Part shown: positions 55,228 to 64,000 of the stretch, one piece after another | How the letters are laid out: every line of letters starts with the position of its first letter | How positions within the stretch are numbered: position 1 is the stretch's first letter | Assembly (NCBI RefSeq): GCF_012927045.1 | Contig: NZ_JABBFW010000002.1 | Coordinates: 1-64,000 of the forward strand | Direction of reading: 5' to 3' | Length of the DNA: 64,000 nucleotides | Source: Azohydromonas caseinilytica | Lineage (GTDB): Bacteria > Pseudomonadota > Gammaproteobacteria > Burkholderiales > Burkholderiaceae_C | Notes under the pieces: model-generated | The model's input: only the letters and a program-made list of their open reading frames with translations | What the model was told of the DNA's origin: nothing | Databases searched by the model: none | Made by a program: the position numbers and the translations under genes

Positions 55228-56589
55228 TCAGCGGGCGAGGTGGTCCAGTGCCAGCGTCACCAGCGTGCGCACGCCCACGGGCAGGGCCTGCTCGTTGAAG
55301 TCGAAGCCCGGCGCGTGGTTGGGCGACACGGTCGCCGGCGTCTTGCCCTCGGGCAGCGCGCCCAGGATGAAGAAGAAGCCCGGCACCACGCGCTGGAACT
55401 CGGAGAAGTCCTCCGAGGCGCTGATCTTGGGCAGCGTCACCACCTTGCCGCCGGTGGCCCGGCGCAGCGACTGCGCCGCGCTCTCGCTGAGCGGCGCGGG
55501 ATTGGCCGTCACGGCGTAGTTGGTGGGGCCGAAGCTCACGCTGGCCTGCGCGCCGCCGGCCGCGGCCACCGACTCCACGGTGCGCGTGATGCGGCGCTTG
55601 GCGTCGGCGCGCATCTCCTCGTCGAAGGCACGCAGCGAGCCCTGCATCTCCACCGACTCGGGAATCACGTTCTCGCGGTTGCCGCCGTGGATTGAGCCGA
55701 TGGTGAGCACGGCGGGCTCGCGGGTGATGTCGAGCTGGCGGCTGACGATGGTCTGCAGCGCCGTGACGATCTGGGCCGACACGGGGATCGGGTCCACGCC
55801 CGTCCAGGGCATGGCCCCATGCGCCTGCGCGCCCTTGACGGTGATGCGCACCGAGTCGGCGCTGGCCATCAGCGGGCCGCTGCGCCAGCCCACCGCGCCC
55901 ACGGGCAGGTTGGGGGCGATGTGCAGGCCGAAGATCGCGTCCACCTTCGGGCCGTCCAGCACGCCCTGCTCGACCATGGCCCGCGCGCCCCAGCTCGCCG
56001 GCGCGGCGTGGCCGCCGGGGTCCGGGATGCCTTCCTCGGCCGGCTGGAAGATGAACTTCACGGTGCCGGGCAGCTGCGCCCGCATGCCGGCCAGCACCTC
56101 GGCCACGCCCATCAGGATGGCGGTGTGGCCGTCGTGGCCGCAGGCATGCGCCACCGGGACCATCTCGCCGCCGTGGCGGCCCTTCTCGCGCGAGGCGAAG
56201 GGCAGGCCGGTGTTCTCGGCGATGGGCAGCGCGTCCATGTCGGCGCGCAGCGCCACCACCTTGCCCGGCAGCGCGCCCCTGAGGACACCGACCACGCCAT
56301 GCCCGCCCACGCCGGTCTTCACTTCCAGCCCCAGCGCGCGCAGGTGCTCGGCCACCAGCTGGGCGGTGCGCACCTCCTGGCCCGAGAGCTCGGGGTGGGC
56401 GTGGATGTCGCGCCGCCAGGCCACGAGCCGGGGCTGCACGGCGGCGATGCGCGCGGCCAGCGCGGCGGCTTCGGGGTCCGGCGCCTGCTGGGCTTGCTGC
56501 GCCTGCGCGCCGCCGCACAGCGCCGCCAGCGCCAGCGCGGCCGTGATCCGGGGTGTCCAAGGGGTTCGCGGCATGGGAGAAGCGTCCAT
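55228..56589 (-). CDS. Exported M20-family amidohydrolase (amino-acylase/hippurate-hydrolase type)
   Basis: The 453-residue protein has a signal peptide (about 7-30, ALALAALCGGAQAQ), so it should act outside the cytoplasm. The M20D motifs are complete: HAHPELSG, RADMDALPI, the metal site HACGHDGH (148-155) and QPAEEG (about 185). Members remove acyl groups from amino acids or peptides. It lies 59 bp after the GlxA-type regulator and is likely co-transcribed with it, divergent from the GNAT-HDO-MFS-PLP operon. Deacylation of a product of that operon is a natural hypothesis. An alternative start is the ATG at 56574. Confidence 0.87.
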   Translation of the reverse strand: MDASPMPRTPWTPRITAALALAALCGGAQAQQAQQAPDPEAAALAARIAAVQPRLVAWRRDIHAHPELSGQEVRTAQLVAEHLRALGLEVKTGVGGHGVVGVLRGALPGKVVALRADMDALPIAENTGLPFASREKGRHGGEMVPVAHACGHDGHTAILMGVAEVLAGMRAQLPGTVKFIFQPAEEGIPDPGGHAAPASWGARAMVEQGVLDGPKVDAIFGLHIAPNLPVGAVGWRSGPLMASADSVRITVKGAQAHGAMPWTGVDPIPVSAQIVTALQTIVSRQLDITREPAVLTIGSIHGGNRENVIPESVEMQGSLRAFDEEMRADAKRRITRTVESVAAAGGAQASVSFGPTNYAVTANPAPLSESAAQSLRRATGGKVVTLPKISASEDFSEFQRVVPGFFFILGALPEGKTPATVSPNHAPGFDFNEQALPVGVRTLVTLALDHLAR

Positions 56590-56648
56590 CTGAGCCAGGG
56601 GAGAGGAGGGCGCCTGGGCCCGTGCAAGCCAGGCGCGCGAGTGTGCCT

Positions 56649-57623
56649 TTATTCCACTTCCGCGTTCCGGTTCTGCTGGCGCAGCTGCGAGGGCGGGATC
56701 TCCTCGCACTTGTTCCAGTTGGAGCGGAAGGCCTGCATGCTGCTGAAGCCGCAGCGCTCGGCGATGCGCTCCAGCGTCAGCGTGGAGCCGGTGATGAGGC
56801 GGCGCGCCAGGTCCATGCGCAGCTCCATCTGGTAGCGCTTCATGGTGATGCCGGTTTCGGCCTTGAATATGCGCGCCAAGTGCCGGCTGCTGAAACCCGA
56901 TTTTCGCGCCAGCGCCTCGCAGGTCCAGGCCTTGGACAAATTGTTGGAAATCTCGTCCTGCATGCTGTGCACCAGCTGGTTGCCATGGGCGCGGTAGCGG
57001 AATCTCACGCCCAGCTCCGGGTCGTTGCCGAAGCGGCGGAAATGCACCACGTTCTCGCGCGCGACCTGAATGGCCACATGGTCGCCGAAACTCTGGGCAA
57101 TCAATTGCAGGGCCAGGTCGATGCCCGAGGCCACGCCGGCCGAGGTCCAGAGTTTCCCGTCCTGGACGCAGATGCGGTTGTCCACCACCTGGGCCGCCGG
57201 ATGCAGCCGCCGCAATTGCTGGACGAACTGGTGATGGGTGGTGCACAGGCGGCCGTCGAGCAGGCCGGCCTCGCCCAGCAGGAAAGTCCCGGTGCATATG
57301 CCTGCCACCTGGGGCGGATTCCTGGTGGATATTTGCTTGCGCAGCCAGTCGGCGGCCTGGAACCAGGCCGGCGAGCCCATCAGTTTCTCGTCCAGCTTGC
57401 TGCCGATGACGAAAATCACGTTGTCCGGGTCCAGCCTGTCGGGCAGCGGTGAAATATGCCGCAGTGCCACGTTCTGGAAGGTGAGAACATCCTGTTGCGG
57501 ACCGATGCACTGGATATTGACGCCGGATATGCCTAATTCGCCCAGCGTGCCCATGATTTGCAGCGGGCCGGCCAGGTCCAGCATGTGCACATGCGGGAGC
57601 ACCAGGAAGTAGGCCTTATTCAT
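56649..57623 (-). CDS. GlxA-family AraC-type transcriptional regulator
   Basis: The 324-residue protein has an N-terminal DJ-1/PfpI-like domain with the typical Cys elbow (GICTGTFLLGEAGLLDGR, about 117-134). A C-terminal AraC DNA-binding domain follows (about 225-320), with ALARKSGFSSRHLARIFKAE and IAERCGFSSMQAFRSNW. Relatives sense amines, arginine, carnitine or related small molecules. An AGGGAG ribosome site precedes the ATG at 57623. It diverges from the GNAT-HDO operon and precedes the M20 gene, so it probably controls both. Confidence 0.87.
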   Translation of the reverse strand: MNKAYFLVLPHVHMLDLAGPLQIMGTLGELGISGVNIQCIGPQQDVLTFQNVALRHISPLPDRLDPDNVIFVIGSKLDEKLMGSPAWFQAADWLRKQISTRNPPQVAGICTGTFLLGEAGLLDGRLCTTHHQFVQQLRRLHPAAQVVDNRICVQDGKLWTSAGVASGIDLALQLIAQSFGDHVAIQVARENVVHFRRFGNDPELGVRFRYRAHGNQLVHSMQDEISNNLSKAWTCEALARKSGFSSRHLARIFKAETGITMKRYQMELRMDLARRLITGSTLTLERIAERCGFSSMQAFRSNWNKCEEIPPSQLRQQNRNAEVE

Positions 57624-57848
57624 CGTGGCTCCCTTGCGTCGCTGCAACGGCGGCTGACTTTGATGTGGTGGATGTCATTTTTATTGCTTGTCGGTTGGGG
57701 TAACCCATTTTTACATATAGGGAAGTCATCGGTGAGTGCCCTGCGGCAACTCATGTCCGTTTTTTTGCTATTTGTAGCCTGAAGTTTGCTGTCAGCCCCT
57801 GGGGACGGTAGTTAGTATCGGTAACCCGACCGATTTACAGGGCCGCTC
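57624..57848. promoter_or_regulatory. AT-rich divergent control region with repeated GGTAACCC boxes
   Basis: This 225-bp stretch separates the GlxA gene from the GNAT operon and is visibly richer in A+T than its surroundings. GGTAACCC occurs at 57699-57706 and 57820-57827, each preceded by TCGG. TCGGT/ACCGA inverted repeats (57818-57833) overlap the second. A possible -10 is TAGTAT at 57813-57818. A T7 run (57762-57768) follows a GAGTGCC hairpin. These are candidate regulator sites, not proven ones. Confidence 0.5.
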
Positions 57849-58400
57849 ATGGTTGCAGACCTGAATTGTGGCTGGATTTCCAGTCTCGACCCCCATGAGG
57901 GCCAGGCCATCATTGGCTTGATCAATACGACGGTGAACGACGGCGGCACGCTGGGCTATGCGGCGCCGATGTCGGAAACCGAAGCCAAGTATTTTCTTTT
58001 CAACCTGAACCGCCGCATGGCCTCGGGTGAATCCCATGTGCTGCTGGGCCGCGTGGGCGGGGAGCCGGCAGTCATGGCGATTTTGACGCTCAACGGCATG
58101 CACAATTGTCGGCATCGCGCCGAAATCGGCAAGGGCGTGGTGGCGCCGCAATTCCGAAATGGGCAGGTGGTCAAGGCCGCTTTCCGGGAAATCGTCCGGC
58201 GCGCCGAGGCGCTGCAGGTGGAGCAACTGGTGCTCGACGTGCGCGAGGGCAGCCGCGCCCATATGCTGTGGCAGCGTTTCGGATTCAGGACCTACGGCGT
58301 GCTGGAAGATTATGCCCGCATCGGTGGCGTGAGCCACCGGGGGCATTTCATGGTGCAGACCACGGCTTCGCTGCGGGCCCACATGTTCGGACCGGATTGA
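57849..58400 (+). CDS. GNAT-family N-acetyltransferase
   Basis: The 183-residue protein has the GNAT core: the beta4-alpha3 segment AEIGKGVVAPQFRNGQVVKAAFR (in parts, about 92-114), then QLVLDVREGSRAHMLWQRFGF. The acetyl-CoA loop is degenerate (FRNGQVVK rather than Rx2GxG). It is the first gene of a rightward operon with the HDO enzyme, an MFS transporter and a PLP enzyme. It may acetylate an amine or amino acid made or handled by the others. Base composition is more AT-rich than downstream genes. Confidence 0.8.
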   Translation: MVADLNCGWISSLDPHEGQAIIGLINTTVNDGGTLGYAAPMSETEAKYFLFNLNRRMASGESHVLLGRVGGEPAVMAILTLNGMHNCRHRAEIGKGVVAPQFRNGQVVKAAFREIVRRAEALQVEQLVLDVREGSRAHMLWQRFGFRTYGVLEDYARIGGVSHRGHFMVQTTASLRAHMFGPD

Positions 58401-58437
58401 CGGCGGATTGACCCAATTCACCAGAGGGAGCAGGTCC

Positions 58438-59175
58438 ATGCAGGACAAGCGAGTTTTCAAGGAGGCACTGCGGCAGGAATTGCAGCGTCATTTGACCTTG
58501 TCGCATCCGATATTCGGAAAACTGTTCGACCCCGGGCAACCCGATATCGAGCTCCTGCGCCAGGTCGCGCTCCAGGGCTATCAGCTCACCAAGCATTTCC
58601 TGGGCTATGTCGAGCACCTGTTCTTCTATTGCCCGCTGCCCCATTTCAAGAGGGCCCTGCTGTGCAACGTCTACGAGGAGGAGACGGGCCGGCTGTCCCG
58701 GACCGACAACCACGTGGTGCTGATACAGCGCTTCCTGCGTGCCCTGGACATCAGCGATGAGCAGCGCGACGCGGTGCGGCCGCTGCCGGCCACCCGCGAG
58801 CTGATCGAGTACCGGGCGGCGGCGGTGCGCGACCCGGCCCTCTACCACATCGGCGCCGCGGCGGTACTCATCGCCAGCGAGGGCCAGAACCTGGAAACCA
58901 GCGACGGCGAGCCCCGGCATGAGCTGCTGGCGCGCGCCTACGGCCTCAAGCCCGAGGACCTGCTGTTCTTCTCGGTGCACCAGAAGGAGGACGTGGGCCA
59001 TGTGGAGCAGGGCCTGAGCCTGGTGTCGGAGCTGTGCGGCACGGCGCGGATGCAGCAGGAGGCGCTGCAGGCGGTGGACCACACCTGCGGGCTGTTCTAC
59101 GCGATGTACGAAAACATGTACCGCGAGTACTGCCGCGCTCCGGTCGCGGTCCGGACCACCCTGGCGGCGGCCTGA
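58438..59175 (+). CDS. Heme-oxygenase-fold diiron oxidase (HDO, TenA/PqqC/CADD-like)
   Basis: The 245-residue protein contains the HDO ligand set. E80-E82 lie in NVYEEETG, then H92 in NHVVL, E148 in ASEGQN, and H181-x3-D185-x2-H188 in FSVHQKEDVGHVE. The spacing is the same as in CADD-type HDO proteins, whose ligands are Glu, His, Glu, His, Asp, His in that order. HDOs cleave or oxidise carbon chains of amino acids or fatty acids with O2. An AGGGAG ribosome site lies upstream of the ATG. The gene follows the GNAT by 37 bp. The substrate is not known. Confidence 0.85.
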   Translation: MQDKRVFKEALRQELQRHLTLSHPIFGKLFDPGQPDIELLRQVALQGYQLTKHFLGYVEHLFFYCPLPHFKRALLCNVYEEETGRLSRTDNHVVLIQRFLRALDISDEQRDAVRPLPATRELIEYRAAAVRDPALYHIGAAAVLIASEGQNLETSDGEPRHELLARAYGLKPEDLLFFSVHQKEDVGHVEQGLSLVSELCGTARMQQEALQAVDHTCGLFYAMYENMYREYCRAPVAVRTTLAAA

Positions 59176-59186
59176 CGGGAGCGGTC

Positions 59187-60440
59187 ATGGCCCACACGGA
59201 CCGCTATCTGATCCACCGCCTGGTGGCCCTGGGCTTCGTGGTGATGTTCCTGTCCACCACCGTCAAGGGCGTGTACCAGATGTTCTTCGTGCCGCTGGCC
59301 GAGCATTTCGGCCGCGGGCGCGCGGACCTGGCCTGGTCCATGTCGCTGTTCATGCTGGTGTCCGGGCTGATGTCGCCCGTGGTGGGCGCGCTCAGCGACC
59401 GCGCCGGCCCGCTGCGCACGGTGGTGGCGGGCGCGCTGGTGGGGGGCGCCGCGCTGGCGCTGCCGACGCTGTTCCCCGGGTCGCTGGCGCTGTTCATCGC
59501 GGCCTACGGCCTGGGCGGGGCCTTCGCGCTGGCGGCCATGACCTACGTGCCCATGGGCGTGCTGGTGGACCGGCTGTTCGAGCACCGCAAGAAGGGCTTC
59601 GCCTTCGCGCTGGTCACCAACGGAACCTCCATCGGCTTCATCGTGCTGTCGCCGCTGTGGATGGCGCTCAGGCCGCACCTGGGCTGGGCCGAGGCCTTCG
59701 GCGGCGTGGCGCTGCTGCTGGCCGGGCCGGTGGCGGTGCTGGCCTGGCTCGGCGCCCGCGCCATGGACCAGGCCGGCCTGTCGCAGGCGCCCGCCGAGGC
59801 CGGCCCCCGGGTGGCGGTGTGGCGCCAGGTGCGCGCCGACCCGGGCTTCTACGTGCTGGCGCTGGGCTTCCTGGGCTGCGGCGCGACCATGGCCTTCATC
59901 GACGTGCACCTGATTCCCTTCTGGGAAGGCGTGCAGGCCTCGCGCGCGCGCATGGGGCTGAGCCTGAGCCTGCTGGGCGTGCTGGAGCTGGCCAGCGGCC
60001 TGTTCACCGGCTGGCTGGCCATGCACTGGAAGAAGCACGCGCTGCTGGCGGGCTTCTACCTGCTGCGCTCGGTGGCGATGCTGCTGCTGCTGGCCGGCGG
60101 CAACCCCGAGGTGCAGACACTGGGCTTCGCGGTGGTGTTCGGCGCCAGCTACCTGGGCACCGTGGTGATCACGTCCATGTACTGCTTCGAGCGCTACGGC
60201 GCGGCCATCAAGGGGCAGGTGTTCGGCCTGCTGTTCCTGGTGCACCAGCTCGGCGCCTTCGCCTCGGTACAGCTCGGCGCCTGGAGCTTCGACGCCAGCG
60301 GCCACTACCGCAACGTCATCGCGGCCCTGGTGCTGCTGACGGCGCTGGGCGGGCTGGCCGGGTTCCTGGGCCTGCGCGAGCGCACGCCGGTCGCGCCCAC
60401 GGTCATCGCCGCGTCCCGCTCCCGGGTCGGCGCGAAGTAG
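59187..60440 (+). CDS. MFS transporter
   Basis: The 417-residue protein has 12 predicted helices in two halves. The loop 2-3 motif GALSDRAGPLRTV (about 68-80) matches the MFS GxxxDRxGR signature. It lies 11 bp after the HDO gene and 35 bp before the PLP enzyme. Export of the operon product is plausible, but import cannot be ruled out. The resemblance to oxalate/formate-type MFS proteins is only general. Confidence 0.87.
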   Translation: MAHTDRYLIHRLVALGFVVMFLSTTVKGVYQMFFVPLAEHFGRGRADLAWSMSLFMLVSGLMSPVVGALSDRAGPLRTVVAGALVGGAALALPTLFPGSLALFIAAYGLGGAFALAAMTYVPMGVLVDRLFEHRKKGFAFALVTNGTSIGFIVLSPLWMALRPHLGWAEAFGGVALLLAGPVAVLAWLGARAMDQAGLSQAPAEAGPRVAVWRQVRADPGFYVLALGFLGCGATMAFIDVHLIPFWEGVQASRARMGLSLSLLGVLELASGLFTGWLAMHWKKHALLAGFYLLRSVAMLLLLAGGNPEVQTLGFAVVFGASYLGTVVITSMYCFERYGAAIKGQVFGLLFLVHQLGAFASVQLGAWSFDASGHYRNVIAALVLLTALGGLAGFLGLRERTPVAPTVIAASRSRVGAK

Positions 60441-60475
60441 GCCCATCCATCCACGCACATCGGCAGGGGGAAGAA

Positions 60476-61693
60476 ATGACTGCGCATCACATGGCGACCC
60501 GGGCCCTCCACGAAGGGCATCACCAAGACCTGTCGGACTCGCACTGCGAGCCCATCGCCATGACCTCGGCCTATGTCTTCAAGTCGGCCGCCGAGGCCGC
60601 CGCGCGCTTCTCCGGCGCGAGCAAGGGCAACGTCTACTCGCGCTTCACCAATCCCACGGTGCGCGCCTTCGAGCAGCGCCTGGCCTCCATGGAGGGCGCG
60701 CAGGACGGCATCGCCTTCTCCTCGGGCATGGCCGCCATCGCCGGGGTGGCGCATGCCTGGCTGGAGGCGGGCAAGAACGTGGTGGTGTCCAAGGACGTGT
60801 TCGGCACCACGCTCACGGCCTTCCGCCACTACTTCGGCCGCCTCGGCGTGCAGGTGCGCACCGTGGAGCTGACCCGGCTCGACGCCTGGCGCCGCGCCAT
60901 CGACAGCAACACCCGGCTGGTGTTCCTGGAGTCGCCTTCCAACCCCGTGCAGCAGGTGGCCCACATCCGCTCGATTGCGGCGCTGTCGCACGCCATGGGA
61001 GCGCTGCTGGTGGTGGACAACACCATGCTCACGCCGGTGTTCCAGAACCCGCTGGAACTGGGCGCGGACCTGGTGCTGCACTCGGCCGGCAAGTACATCG
61101 ACGGCCAGGGCCGCTGCGTGGCCGGCGCCGTGCTGGGCAGCGAGCGCCTGGTGTCCGACCTGCGCGGCGTCATGCGCACGCTGGGCAGCAGCCTCAGCGC
61201 CATGAACGCCTGGATGCTGCTCAAGAGCCTGGAGACGCTGCAGATGCGCGTGCGCGCCATGAGCGCCTCCGCCGGCGCCGTGGCGCGCTGGCTGCAGCAG
61301 CATGGCAGCGTGCGCGGGGTGCACTACACCGGGCTGGCCGAGCATCCGCAGCACACCCTCATCGGCCAGCAGCAGCGCGGGCACGGCGCCGTGTTCAGCT
61401 TCGAGGTGGGCGACACGCGCGAGGAGGCCTGGCGCTTCATGGACGCGCTTCAGCTCGTGGCCATCGCCACCAACATCGGCGACACGCGTTCCATGGTCAC
61501 GCACCCGGCCTCCACCACCCACTGCCGGCTCACGGCCGAGGAGCGGCGCCAGGCCGGCATCGGCGACAACCTGGTGCGACTGTCGGTGGGCCTGGAAGAC
61601 CTCACCGACCTGGTGGACGACCTCGACGCCGCCCTGGCGCGGGCCGACATCGTCCCGCGCGAGCTCCAGGAAAGCCTGGCCACCGCCTCCTGA
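60476..61693 (+). CDS. Cys/Met-metabolism PLP enzyme (O-succinylhomoserine sulfhydrylase, MetZ-like)
   Basis: The 405-residue enzyme has the PLP lysine K206 in LHSAGKYIDGQGR, Y54SRFTNPT for substrate and PLP contact, F81SSGMAAIAG and D181 that binds the pyridine N. MetZ normally has SATKY, and here it is SAGKY. It would catalyse a gamma-replacement or gamma-elimination on a homoserine-type substrate. In the operon it follows the MFS gene, with a GGGGGAAG ribosome site before the ATG. A role in methionine synthesis is possible, but the linked HDO and GNAT genes suggest a special pathway. Confidence 0.87.
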   Translation: MTAHHMATRALHEGHHQDLSDSHCEPIAMTSAYVFKSAAEAAARFSGASKGNVYSRFTNPTVRAFEQRLASMEGAQDGIAFSSGMAAIAGVAHAWLEAGKNVVVSKDVFGTTLTAFRHYFGRLGVQVRTVELTRLDAWRRAIDSNTRLVFLESPSNPVQQVAHIRSIAALSHAMGALLVVDNTMLTPVFQNPLELGADLVLHSAGKYIDGQGRCVAGAVLGSERLVSDLRGVMRTLGSSLSAMNAWMLLKSLETLQMRVRAMSASAGAVARWLQQHGSVRGVHYTGLAEHPQHTLIGQQQRGHGAVFSFEVGDTREEAWRFMDALQLVAIATNIGDTRSMVTHPASTTHCRLTAEERRQAGIGDNLVRLSVGLEDLTDLVDDLDAALARADIVPRELQESLATAS

Positions 61694-61706
61694 GGCGCAG
61701 GACGCC

Positions 61707-61916
61707 ATGGCGCTGACGCTGCTCAAGCTGCTGCTGGCCGCCGCGCTGGCGCTGCCGTTCCTGCTGACGGCGCTGCGCAGCCGCTCCCGGCGCCAGGCCC
61801 GGCGCTGGCTGCTGCTCATGCTCGGCGCCCTGTGGGCCGGACTGCTGGCCGACCCGCTGCAGTACGGCAACCGGCTGGTGGACCAGGCGGTGCTGGGGGC
61901 GAGCTGCCGCTTTTGA
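61707..61916 (+). CDS. Small two-helix membrane protein at the end of the HDO operon
   Basis: The 69-residue protein has two hydrophobic helices (ALTLLKLLLAAALALPFLLT, then WLLLMLGALWAGLLADPL) separated by a basic loop (RSRSRRQARR). It begins 13 bp after the PLP enzyme stop. It is not recognisable as a family. Membrane topology with a positive inside loop looks real rather than a chance opening. It may help the MFS transporter or anchor the enzymes. Confidence 0.6.
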   Translation: MALTLLKLLLAAALALPFLLTALRSRSRRQARRWLLLMLGALWAGLLADPLQYGNRLVDQAVLGASCRF

Positions 61917-62170: not shown

Positions 62171-63160
62171 TCAATCCGGCTTGATCTTGGCCCGCTCGAT
62201 CACCGGCTTCCAGCGCTTCTGTTCCGCGGCGATGAAGGCGGCGAAATCGGCCGGGGTGCTGCCCACGGCCAGGGCGGCCTCGGTCTTGTAGTGCTCCTGC
62301 GCCGCGGGCGTCTTCACGGACGCGGCCGCCGCCGGGGCCAGGCGCTCCAGCGCGGCCTGCGACAAGTTGGCCGGCGCCATCAGCCCGTACCACTGCGTCA
62401 TCTCGAAGCCCGGGAAGCCCTGCTCGGCCACGGTGGGCACCTCGGGCAGCTGCGGGATGCGCTGCGGCGTGCCGGTGGCGATGCAGCGCAGCTTGCCGGC
62501 CTTGATGAACTGCAGGATCGCCGGTGCGCCCACCGAGGCCGCGTCCAGCCGGCCGGCGATCAGGTCGGTCAGCATCGGGCCGGTGCCGCGGTAGGGCACG
62601 TGCAGCATGAACGTGTCCGTGGCCATCTTCAGGTACTCCATGGCCAAGTGGCCGGCGCTGCCGTTGCCGGCCGAGCCGTAAGTGAGCCGGCCCGGTTTGC
62701 TCTTGGCCAGGGCAATGAGCTCCTTGAGGTTCTTCACCGGCAGCGCCGGGTTGACCACGTACAGGCTGGGCACCTTGGCCAGCAGGCTCACGGCCTTGAA
62801 GTCCTTGTTCGGGTCGTAGGGCAGCTTGGGGAAGATGAAGGGATTCACCGCCAGCGTGCCGATGTGGCCGAGGATCAGCGTGTGCTGGTCGTCCGCGCGC
62901 GCCACCTCGCCCATGGCGACGTTGCCGGCGCCGCCGGGCTTGTTGTCCACGTACACCGACTGTCCCAGCGATTTCGTGAGCTCCGCGGCGGCAGCGCGCG
63001 CCACGATCTCGGAGCTGCCGCCCGGGGCGAAGGGCACCACCAAGCGCACGGCTTTAGAGGGCCAAGCCTGGGCCTGGGCCAGCCCCGGCCACAGGGTCGC
63101 GCCGCCGAGGGCGCCGCCCAGCGCCAGCCACTGGCGGCGGGTGAGTTGTAGATCGTTCAT
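62171..63160 (-). CDS. Bug-family substrate-binding protein coupled to an amidohydrolase
   Basis: The 329-residue protein has an N-terminal twin-arginine-like signal (TRRQWLALGGALGG) ending near AQAQA. The Bug core follows: RLVVPFAPGGSSE, NKPGGAGNVAMGE, YGSAGNGSAGHLAME and PQLPEVPTVAEQG. It is the periplasmic binding protein of a tripartite tricarboxylate system. The ATG overlaps the stop of the amidohydrolase (ATGA). This links it to hydrolysis of a cyclic carboxylate, perhaps an aromatic ring-cleavage product. TctAB permease genes are not in the window. Confidence 0.9.
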   Translation of the reverse strand: MNDLQLTRRQWLALGGALGGATLWPGLAQAQAWPSKAVRLVVPFAPGGSSEIVARAAAAELTKSLGQSVYVDNKPGGAGNVAMGEVARADDQHTLILGHIGTLAVNPFIFPKLPYDPNKDFKAVSLLAKVPSLYVVNPALPVKNLKELIALAKSKPGRLTYGSAGNGSAGHLAMEYLKMATDTFMLHVPYRGTGPMLTDLIAGRLDAASVGAPAILQFIKAGKLRCIATGTPQRIPQLPEVPTVAEQGFPGFEMTQWYGLMAPANLSQAALERLAPAAAASVKTPAAQEHYKTEAALAVGSTPADFAAFIAAEQKRWKPVIERAKIKPD

Positions 63161-64000
63161 GACGTGGGGTCCTGCAGGTAGAGGGCGGGCGCGTGGGCCC
63201 GCAGGAGGTGCGCCGTGGCGGCGTCGCCGAGTACCCGGCGCAGCGGCGCCAGGGTGCTGTCGTAGGTGGGCAGGGCGTCGGGCGCGAAGCTCGTGTGCGG
63301 CCAGTCCGAGCCCCACACGCAGCGGTCGCCGAACAGCGCGGCCGCGCGCTCGATGGCCGGCCACAGCGCCGGGTAGGGTTCCACGGACTGCAGCCGGTAC
63401 CAGCCCGACAGCTTGATCCAGGCGCCGCCCTCGGCCAGGGCCGCGGCGGCGGCCCAGGCCGGGTCCTCGGCGGGCAGCGCGGCATGCAGGCCGGCGAGAT
63501 GGTCCAGCACGAACGGCAGATCCATTTCGCGCTGCAGCGTCGCCAGGCCGGCCAGATGCCCGGCCCGCGCATACCACTGCACATGCCAGCCGCGCCGGCG
63601 CAGCCGGGGGGCCAGTGAGCGCAGCGCGTCGCCGGCATCGCCCTGGTGGCCCACGGGCGACACCAGGTTGAAACGGATGCCGCGCACGCCGGCCGCGTGC
63701 AGCTCGTCCAGCGTGGCGTCGGAGACGTCCGGCTCGACCACCGCCACGCCGCGGTGCCGGCCGGCGCTGGCCTGCAGCGCGCGCAGCATCACGCTGTTGT
63801 CGCTGCCGTAGACGCTGGGCTGCACCAGCACCAGGTGCCGGATGCCGTGGCCGGCGGCGCGGGCCTCGATCTCGTGCAGCGGCCGGTGCGCCGGCACGTA
63901 GTGGCCCGGCTGCACCGGCGCGGCGATGTCGAAGACATGCACGTGGCAGTCCCAGCCGCCGTCTTCCGGTGAATCAGAGAGGCGGGTGATGCCTGGCTCC
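63157..64000 (-). CDS. Amidohydrolase related to 2-pyrone-4,6-dicarboxylate hydrolase (5' end cut off)
   Basis: The gene runs off the right edge, and 280 residues are visible. The metal motif W-D-C-H-V-H-V-F-D lies near the visible N-terminus. The metal and catalytic Asp follow in WGSDWPHTSF (about 220), and FVLDHLAGLH lies between them. This is the COG3618 group, which includes LigI, the lactonase of protocatechuate 4,5-cleavage. It probably hydrolyses a cyclic ester or lactone. The Bug protein overlaps its stop by 4 bp, which suggests uptake and hydrolysis of the same compound. The true start is outside the window. Confidence 0.85.
   Translation of the reverse strand, partial: EPGITRLSDSPEDGGWDCHVHVFDIAAPVQPGHYVPAHRPLHEIEARAAGHGIRHLVLVQPSVYGSDNSVMLRALQASAGRHRGVAVVEPDVSDATLDELHAAGVRGIRFNLVSPVGHQGDAGDALRSLAPRLRRRGWHVQWYARAGHLAGLATLQREMDLPFVLDHLAGLHAALPAEDPAWAAAAALAEGGAWIKLSGWYRLQSVEPYPALWPAIERAAALFGDRCVWGSDWPHTSFAPDALPTYDSTLAPLRRVLGDAATAHLLRAHAPALYLQDPTS

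What the first reader, a model, noticed from the sequence alone, without database searches (positions are those of the whole stretch)
55228..61916. GlxA/M20 and GNAT-HDO-MFS-MetZ divergent cluster: possible undescribed amino-acid metabolite pathway
A GlxA-type regulator and an exported M20 amidohydrolase face an operon of GNAT acetyltransferase, HDO, MFS transporter, MetZ-like PLP enzyme and a small membrane protein. HDO enzymes such as BesC and CADD cleave amino-acid chains, and BesB is a PLP enzyme of the cystathionine-gamma-lyase fold. An acetylase inside and a deacylase outside, with an exporter between, resemble the mask-export-unmask logic of some antibiotic producers. The pathway is inferred from gene content; no halogenase or ligase is seen.
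Basis: partly seen in the sequence, partly recalled or inferred. Interest (0 to 1): 0.8.

Follow-up and report, generated by a model that had tools for sequence, protein, structure and literature searches.

The report
Undescribed homoserine-derived amino acid pathway
A small set of bacterial genes that keeps the same order in many unrelated bacteria, and whose core also sits inside antibiotic-type assembly lines, probably builds and acetylates an unusual amino acid by a route that we could not find described.

Summary
GNAT-HDO-MFS-MetZ-like keeps the same order in 19 of 25 database loci of this HDO, from Pseudomonas to Acinetobacter and Marinobacter, so "adjacent only in this strain" is refuted. 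The MetZ-like enzyme is not housekeeping MetZ: it forms its own clade (99/96) and has Gly for Thr just before the PLP lysine in all 19 loci. The HDO has the CADD fold and six metal ligands but lacks CADD's two sacrificial residues. The GNAT resembles tabtoxin-resistance acetylase and is fused to the HDO in 3 of 25 loci. Six loci lack MetZ and MFS; five of these carry NRPS/PKS genes. Instead of MetZ they have a nicotianamine-synthase-like gene in the genome (6 of 6 genomes of that kind; 0 of 19 others) or an SbnA-like gene in the locus. All three families move an aminocarboxyalkyl group. Best reading: a pathway to a 4-substituted 2-aminobutyrate, oxidised by the HDO, acetylated and transported. 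Substrate and product are unproven. The M20 gene is not a conserved member.

The parts
57849..58400 (+). GNAT acetyltransferase; nearest solved relative is tabtoxin resistance protein
   Evidence: Acetyltransf_1 24.7 bits; profile of 21 GNATs (window and 20 loci) hits 1ghe at 3.2e-17; one frame with the HDO in L029, L031, L035
58438..59175 (+). HDO (heme-oxygenase-like dimetal protein), CADD fold, ligands E81 H92 E148 H181 D185 H188
   Evidence: PF14518 73 bits; AF2 pLDDT 90.4; best fold match 1rcw_B Z 26.9, 1.8 A, 212 residues; the six residues in 32 of 32 rows compared, two outgroups included
59187..60440 (+). MFS transporter, direction unknown
   Evidence: MFS_1 110 bits; best NCBIfam L-lactate MFS 79.6 bits, cut-off 320 not met; present in 19 of 19 MetZ-type loci
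60476..61693 (+). MetZ-derived PLP enzyme with S-A-G-K in place of S-x-T-K
   Evidence: PRK08133 514.6 bits, cut-off 522 not met; own clade 99/96 beside housekeeping MetZ; SxGK in 19 of 19 loci; another MetZ-type protein, 48% identical, elsewhere in the genome
61707..61916 (+). small membrane protein, 69 aa
   Evidence: no Pfam or NCBIfam match; similar frame after the MetZ-like gene in 13 of 19 loci by eye; BLAST supports L013 and L023 only
56649..57623 (-). GlxA-type regulator (DJ-1/PfpI + AraC), likely controls the operon
   Evidence: homologue in 19 of 19 MetZ-type loci
57764..57790 (+). candidate regulator site: TTTGCT direct repeat 21 bp apart, 85 bp before the GNAT start
   Evidence: 0 mismatches at -85 in L023 and -95 in L020, 1 in L021 and L022, 3 in L013; no match with 2 or fewer mismatches within 350 bp before GNAT in the other 14 MetZ-type loci; chance matches occur elsewhere. 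Suggestive only
55228..56574 (-). M20 amidohydrolase with signal-like N-terminus; membership doubtful
   Evidence: TIGR01891 336 bits; adjacent only in the two Azohydromonas, which share synteny on both sides

Best explanation
A biosynthetic operon for a noncanonical amino acid. Step 1 (inferred): the MetZ-derived PLP enzyme takes O-succinyl- (or acetyl-) homoserine and replaces its leaving group by a nucleophile other than sulfide, giving a 4-substituted 2-aminobutyrate; nicotianamine-synthase-like (NAS) and SbnA-like enzymes do the equivalent job from SAM or a serine ester in related clusters. Step 2 (fold and ligands shown by model and alignment, reaction inferred): the HDO oxidises this intermediate with O2. 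Step 3 (inferred): the tabtoxin-resistance-type GNAT, fused to the HDO in three loci, acetylates the product or an intermediate. Step 4 (inferred): the MFS protein moves the product out, and in 12 of 19 loci a hydrolase that looks exported may act on it. The GlxA-type protein regulates the operon. Elsewhere the GNAT-HDO core feeds NRPS or PKS lines.
For: Same gene order in 19 of 19 MetZ-bearing loci of distant bacteria. The MetZ-like copies form one group (99/96) apart from 12 housekeeping MetZ rows, 10 of which come from genomes that also carry the operon. SxGK in 19 of 19 loci against SxTK in 17 of the 19 distinct paralogues that were fetched; the pattern did not match the other two. Positions D209, R213, R234, W246 are shared with true MetZ and mostly differ in five other family members, which suggests that the O-succinylhomoserine substrate is kept; T205G and T340M are changed in 16 of 16 operon rows compared. 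NAS gene in 6 of 6 genomes whose GNAT-HDO has neither a MetZ-like nor an SbnA-type context and in 0 of 19 others; background 3 of 274 class genomes over the cut-off, 10 of 274 at E<=0.001. Three-gene set HDO-NAS-GNAT in L081. SbnA-like gene in L009 and L032. HDO tree: the three contexts need 2 changes, the least possible; SbnA group 100/100, MetZ group 84/91. GNAT-HDO fusion in 3 of 25 loci. NRPS/PKS neighbours.
Against: No substrate or product is known. The stand-in argument rests on two inferred replacements on a tree whose root hangs on very long outgroup branches. In Lysobacter the NAS gene is on another contig and in Tahibacter about 67 kb from the HDO. The SbnA-like gene was not seen in G566, whose fetched stretch is only 3.7 kb, so its type is assumed from its neighbours; the SbnA model's cut-off is not met (318.6 of 350 bits). 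In 2 of 15 MetZ-type genomes (Aliivibrio G439, Alcaligenes G447) the operon copy was the only family member at E<=1e-60, so there it could also serve methionine synthesis. L082 is an HDO of the subfamily with no GNAT or NAS found in its 12.5-kb stretch. Transport direction is unknown. GlxA-type regulators often control catabolism (recalled).
Confidence: 0.52

Rival explanations
1. Catabolic or detoxifying operon: MFS imports a 4-substituted 2-aminobutyrate (canavanine-like), the MetZ-like enzyme cleaves it as a gamma-lyase, GNAT and HDO dispose of the fragments.
For: A GlxA-type regulator and neighbouring hydrolases that look exported suit uptake and breakdown. PLP gamma-lyases of this fold degrade canavanine in Pseudomonas (recalled; the passages of PMC10018355 seen speak only of a canavanine degradation operon).
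Against: The GNAT-HDO core with NAS or SbnA-like genes in or near NRPS/PKS genes fits building, not breakdown; the enzyme keeps MetZ-type residues rather than those of most other family members compared.
Confidence: 0.2
2. Mask-export-unmask production of a toxic amino acid: GNAT acetylates for self-protection, MFS exports, an exported hydrolase removes the mask. This is a narrower form of the best explanation.
For: GNAT nearest to tabtoxin resistance protein; hydrolase with signal-like N-terminus in 12 of 19 loci, its frame overlapping the MetZ-like stop by four bases in L027 and L030.
Against: That hydrolase was not seen in 7 of 19 loci; M20 is not shown to belong; no toxicity data.
Confidence: 0.2
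3. The PLP enzyme is an ordinary MetZ and the neighbours serve sulfur assimilation.
For: Score just under the MetZ cut-off, 514.6 versus 522; the only family member at E<=1e-60 in 2 of 15 MetZ-type genomes.
Against: Another MetZ-type protein in the window's genome and further family members in 13 of 15 MetZ-type genomes; own clade and SxGK; no role for HDO and GNAT in methionine synthesis is known to me.
Confidence: 0.06
4. The HDO is a self-sacrificing 4-aminobenzoate synthase of the CADD type.
For: Closest solved sequences and fold; TIGR04305 hit.
Against: TIGR04305 74 bits, cut-off 200; the sacrificial Tyr is F/V/I/L and the Lys is Arg in 30 of 30 family rows, while outgroup L010 has Tyr and Lys; two hits over the pabB cut-off in the genome.
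Confidence: 0.02

Closest known systems
CADD / NePabS 4-aminobenzoate synthase (HDO)
   Same: Nearest in sequence and fold, same six metal ligands
   Different: Sacrificial Tyr and Lys absent; different gene context
Fluopsin C pathway (FlcB, FlcE, FlcD, FlcC; passages of PMC11363339)
   Same: An HDO acts on an amino acid first joined to another small unit
   Different: There fumarate is added to cysteine; here homoserine-, SAM- or serine-derived donors are inferred, and a GNAT is part of the core
BesB/BesC of beta-ethynylserine biosynthesis
   Same: HDO plus a PLP enzyme of the same fold class (recalled for BesB)
   Different: BesC is a more distant fold match than CADD (Z 20.1 and 26.9); the PLP enzyme is MetZ-derived; no halogenase among the genes shared by the loci
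O-succinylhomoserine sulfhydrylase MetZ
   Same: Fold and several MetZ-typical residues
   Different: Own clade, SxGK, just below the curated cut-offs
Nicotianamine-synthase-like and SbnA-like enzymes
   Same: Aminocarboxypropyl or aminocarboxyethyl transfer (NAS: PMC11794875 passages; SbnA recalled), apparently standing in for the MetZ-like enzyme
   Different: Unrelated families, found with the same GNAT-HDO core in other loci

Membership tests
HDO superfamily | E-H-E-H-(D/E)-H metal ligands on the heme-oxygenase fold | tested here: met
   All six in 32 of 32 rows; fold Z 20-27 to CADD, HrmI, FlcD, UndA, BesC; PF14518 over cut-off
CADD-type 4-aminobenzoate synthase | Sacrificial Tyr27 and Lys152 in CADD numbering (passages of PMC11965152) | tested here: not met
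   F/V/I/L and Arg at the aligned places in 30 of 30 family rows; outgroup L010 has Tyr and Lys
CADD-type 4-aminobenzoate synthase | TIGR04305 curated cut-off of 200 bits | tested here: not met
   74.3 bits
SznF-type 3H/4C HDO (N-oxygenase) | Seventh ligand, a glutamate from an auxiliary helix (PMC13108848 section 4) | tested here: inconclusive
   A carboxylate at position 59 in 28 of 30 rows (27 E, 1 D) but Gly in L081 and L082; no geometry was measured
Housekeeping MetZ | PRK08133 and TIGR01325 cut-offs | tested here: not met
   514.6 of 522 and 476.5 of 510 bits
Housekeeping MetZ | S-x-T-K motif and place in the MetZ clade | tested here: not met
   SxGK in 19 of 19 loci; separate group 99/96
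BesB/BesC-type system | Halogenase and ligase beside the HDO and the PLP enzyme | tested here: inconclusive
   Clusters seen in three or more MetZ-type loci are GNAT, HDO, MFS, MetZ-like, GlxA, the DLH-like gene and the small ORF; no halogenase model was searched
Tabtoxin-resistance-type GNAT | Acetylation of a toxic amino acid | not testable with these tools
   Only sequence kinship: 1ghe 3.2e-17 by profile
SbnA | TIGR03945 cut-off of 350 bits (gene of L009) | tested here: not met
   318.6 bits, best of its NCBIfam hits; hence 'SbnA-like' only
NRPS/PKS precursor pathway | Core genes beside NRPS or PKS genes | tested here: met
   For the GNAT-HDO core in L029, L031, L032, L033, L035 and, by cluster with L032's PKS, L009. 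Not seen for L024 or for the window's operon

The most novel reading that the evidence does not exclude
GNAT-HDO is the core of a donor-interchangeable module: a SAM-, homoserine- or serine-derived aminocarboxyalkyl unit is attached to an amine, the HDO N-oxygenates or oxidatively cleaves the adduct, and the GNAT acylates the nitrogen, giving a hydroxamate- or aminooxy-type amino acid without a flavin N-hydroxylase, used either free (window operon) or as an NRPS/PKS building block.
Probability: 0.2. Interest if true: 0.85.

Novelty: new variant of a known kind. Interest (0 to 1): 0.66.

Why it matters
About a dozen HDOs have a validated function, and a recent review says that most of their reactions were unprecedented for diiron catalysts (PMC13108848 section 4). 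Here gene content narrows the substrate of an orphan HDO: three unrelated enzyme families that transfer an amino-acid unit appear to stand in for one another beside one HDO-GNAT pair. That makes the pathway testable in vitro with purified proteins and in ordinary soil bacteria, and it marks several NRPS/PKS clusters as likely to use an unknown building block.

Tried and rejected
GNAT-HDO fusion in Mitsuaria (L013) was first noted from a long frame and withdrawn: the two matches are in different frames. Only L029, L031 and L035 hold both in one frame.

A seventh, N-oxygenase-type ligand (E59) was considered and weakened: Gly in both G095 copies.

Azetidine-2-carboxylate as common product was considered, because nicotianamine synthases and the HDO PolF can make azetidines (passages), and dropped as first choice, because PLP replacement chemistry by MetZ-like or SbnA-like enzymes is not expected to give it (recalled chemistry).

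The gvg cluster of 4-formylaminooxyvinylglycine: its marker gvgI is a formyltransferase, and the terms 'heme oxygenase' and 'iron-containing' do not occur in that paper's main text (PMC8064604, passages). Dob3 of diazo biosynthesis is a ferritin-type enzyme (PMC13061610, passages). DtpC of Acinetobacter is an HDO beside katE (PMC13232832, passages); it was not compared by sequence.

Plasmid records: no match to the HDO at E<=1e-20 in 72,556 records.

SbnB partner: ornithine-cyclodeaminase-type hits exist in the three genomes searched; in G566 the nearest one over the cut-off on the HDO's contig is about 418 kb away. Not pursued.

Literature: ten searches, partly aimed at other leads; in no listing did I see a GNAT-HDO-MFS-MetZ operon or a GNAT-HDO-NAS set. 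Listings were cut short (10 of 119; 12 of 28; 8 of 19), and the library holds open-licence papers only. Papers seen: sections 4, 8 and 11 of PMC13108848; passages of PMC11363339, PMC11965152, PMC12614342, PMC11794875, PMC13232832, PMC8064604, PMC10018355, PMC13061610; all others in listings only.

Limits of counts. The scan used six peptide patterns of one protein and so reaches close relatives only. L016 and L034 are near-copies, L014 and L016 are from one genome, L009 and L079 are congeners, so rows are not independent. Paralogues listed without a fetched locus were not examined for the motif. Rows dropped before the MetZ tree: L034, L041, L044, L061, L062, L069, L073, L075, L077 (duplicates or near-copies) and L043 (27% identical). 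The comparison used the window, 15 operon rows, 11 MetZ rows and 5 others. Searches were not given the genomes of L019, L022 and L034 (L016 lies in the genome of L014, which was given). Small-ORF likeness and signal-like N-termini were judged by eye.
Full report
What is there. The window lies in an Azohydromonas-like genome: the same-genus genome G001 has its match on a contig of the same length as that of A. australica DSM 1124 (L023). The finding's seven genes are confirmed with small coordinate changes. GNAT, HDO, MFS and the MetZ-like gene run in one direction with gaps of 37, 11 and 35 bases (coordinates), and a GlxA-type regulator faces them. The small ORF follows the MetZ-like stop by 13 bases.

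It is a conserved unit. A scan of one genome per species with peptide patterns of the HDO gave 25 loci. In 19 of the 25, GNAT, HDO, MFS and MetZ-like genes follow in this order on one strand, and a GlxA-type gene lies in the same locus (opposite strand in 18, same strand in L030). They come from Pseudomonas, Mitsuaria, Cupriavidus, Iodobacter, Alcaligenes, Azohydromonas, Bacterioplanes, Methylobacter, Marinobacter, Aliivibrio and Acinetobacter. Among these 19, identity to the window falls to about 53% (HDO), 43% (MetZ-like), 33% (MFS) and 28% (GNAT), so the order has outlived much sequence change. The subfamily is rare and patchy: 2 of 369, 4 of 399 and 1 of 299 genomes drawn from class, family and phylum, each count including the window's genome. 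P. indoloxydans has two copies of the operon (L014, L016).

Accessory genes. A hydrolase with a signal-like N-terminus is in 12 of 19 loci; the member scanned is of the dienelactone-hydrolase kind, and in L027 and L030 its frame overlaps the MetZ-like stop by four bases. A small hydrophobic frame follows the MetZ-like gene in 13 of 19 loci and in the window, with a Cys near a similar C-terminus; this rests on inspection, and BLAST at E<1e-3 supports only L013 and L023. The M20 gene is next to the set only in the two Azohydromonas, which share the flanking genes too, so it is not shown to belong.

The PLP enzyme is not the usual MetZ. The window's genome has another MetZ-type protein, 48% identical. 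Of 15 MetZ-type genomes behind the loci, 13 have a further family member at E<=1e-60; in Aliivibrio (G439) and Alcaligenes (G447) the operon copy was the only one. In a tree of 37 rows the 19 operon copies (18 loci and the window) form one side of a branch (99/96), next to 12 housekeeping MetZ rows (100/99), 10 of which come from genomes that carry the operon. The residue before the PLP lysine is Gly in all 19 loci and the window, and Thr in 17 of the 19 distinct paralogues fetched; the pattern did not match the other two. Met340 in place of Thr is a second change, seen in 16 of 16 operon rows compared; D209, R213, R234 and W246, shared with true MetZ, are kept, and most of five other family members lack them. 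I infer that the donor substrate is kept and the second substrate changed.

The HDO. AlphaFold2 gives a confident model (pLDDT 90.4). The best structural matches are Chlamydia CADD (Z 26.9, 212 residues, 1.8 A), then the N-oxygenase HrmI (23.9), PqqC (23.7), FlcD (21.8), UndA (21.7) and BesC (20.1). The six HDO ligands are present in 32 of 32 rows, but CADD's sacrificial Tyr and Lys are F/V/I/L and Arg in 30 of 30 family rows; the outgroup L010 has both. The genome has two hits over the pabB cut-off. So it is an HDO of unknown reaction, not a CADD-type 4-aminobenzoate synthase.

The GNAT. A profile of 21 sequences finds the tabtoxin resistance acetyltransferase first (1ghe, 3.2e-17). In L029, L031 and L035 GNAT and HDO are in one open frame; in L029 and L035 there is no Met at the junction, in L031 there is. 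The two proteins therefore probably act on the same or successive compounds.

The other contexts. Six of 25 loci lack MFS and MetZ-like genes. L031, L033 and L035 carry NRPS genes, L029 an NRPS end with a thioesterase, L032 a PKS; nothing of the kind was seen in L024. L009 (genome G031) has a protein that clusters with L032's PKS. A NAS-like gene (PF03059) is near GNAT and HDO in L024, L031 and L033 and in the three-gene set HDO-NAS-GNAT of L081 (genome G095). An SbnA-like gene is in L009 and L032 (the SbnA cut-off is not met). Of 25 whole genomes searched, NAS is in 6 of 6 that have neither the MetZ-like operon nor the SbnA-type locus, and in none of the 16 MetZ-type and 3 SbnA-type genomes; G566 is counted as SbnA-type from its neighbours, its SbnA-like gene not having been seen. 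In Tahibacter the NAS gene is about 67 kb from the HDO on a contig of the same length, in Lysobacter on another contig; both lie next to NRPS genes. Background: 3 of 274 class genomes over the cut-off, one of them the HDO carrier G095, and 10 of 274 at E<=0.001. The cluster-type NAS proteins are 38-70% alike in local alignments and 27-35% to Sorangium's second NAS; the nearest solved named relative of L031's is thermonicotianamine synthase. On the HDO tree the contexts need two changes, the least possible for three labels: the SbnA group (100/100) and the MetZ group (84/91) sit among NAS-type rows, with a root that hangs on long outgroup branches. The simplest account is that MetZ-like and SbnA-like enzymes each took over the task of a NAS-like enzyme once. 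All three families move an aminocarboxyalkyl group onto a nucleophile (NAS: PMC11794875 passages; MetZ and SbnA recalled). This is the main new result. It predicts that the window's MetZ-like enzyme makes a 4-substituted 2-aminobutyrate. Against it: two events are few, and L082 shows the HDO without GNAT or NAS found in its 12.5-kb stretch.

How it likely works. Donor transfer, O2-dependent oxidation by the HDO, acetylation, then transport; the order of the middle steps is not fixed by the data. Fluopsin C biosynthesis gives a precedent for joining an amino acid to another unit before an HDO acts (PMC11363339 passages). Which nucleophile and which oxidation are open; glutamate is suggested only by kinship to SbnA and thermonicotianamine synthase (their substrates recalled). 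Control by the GlxA-type protein through a TTTGCT direct repeat is suggested by its similar placement in the window, L023 and L020 and by nothing more.

Novelty. The parts are known families; the combination and the donor swap were in no listing of my ten searches, within a library of open-licence papers and with some listings cut short. I rate it a new variant of a known kind (HDO-centred amino-acid biosynthesis).

Noticed in passing
L014 and L016 (Pseudomonas indoloxydans JCM 14246): Two diverged copies of the whole GNAT-HDO-MFS-MetZ operon in one genome.
   Followed up: partly
L082:1612-2382 (-), genome G095: A second HDO of the same subfamily without GNAT or NAS found in its 12.5-kb stretch, in the genome that has the HDO-NAS-GNAT set.
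   Followed up: partly
G000:C19:11730-12206 (L002, L012): A second Haem_oxygenas_2 protein (36.8 bits, over cut-off) elsewhere in the window's genome.
   Followed up: no
L024:10714-11307: In Sorangium a frame alike to the DJ-1/PfpI part of the GlxA regulator (28% over residues 1-184) sits between HDO and GNAT.
   Followed up: no
L029, L031, L035, L032, L009: NRPS/PKS-linked GNAT-HDO loci share an AMP-ligase-like and an Amidohydro_2-like gene; L029, L031 and L035 also share a gene that I took by eye for a ketosynthase-III relative, for which NCBIfam gave nothing at 1e-15.
   Followed up: partly
window 62171-63160 and 63157-63942 (-): A likely Bug-type solute receptor and an amidohydrolase-like protein (both named from recall, no family search) follow the operon on the other strand; among the 25 loci they match only in L023.
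   Followed up: partly
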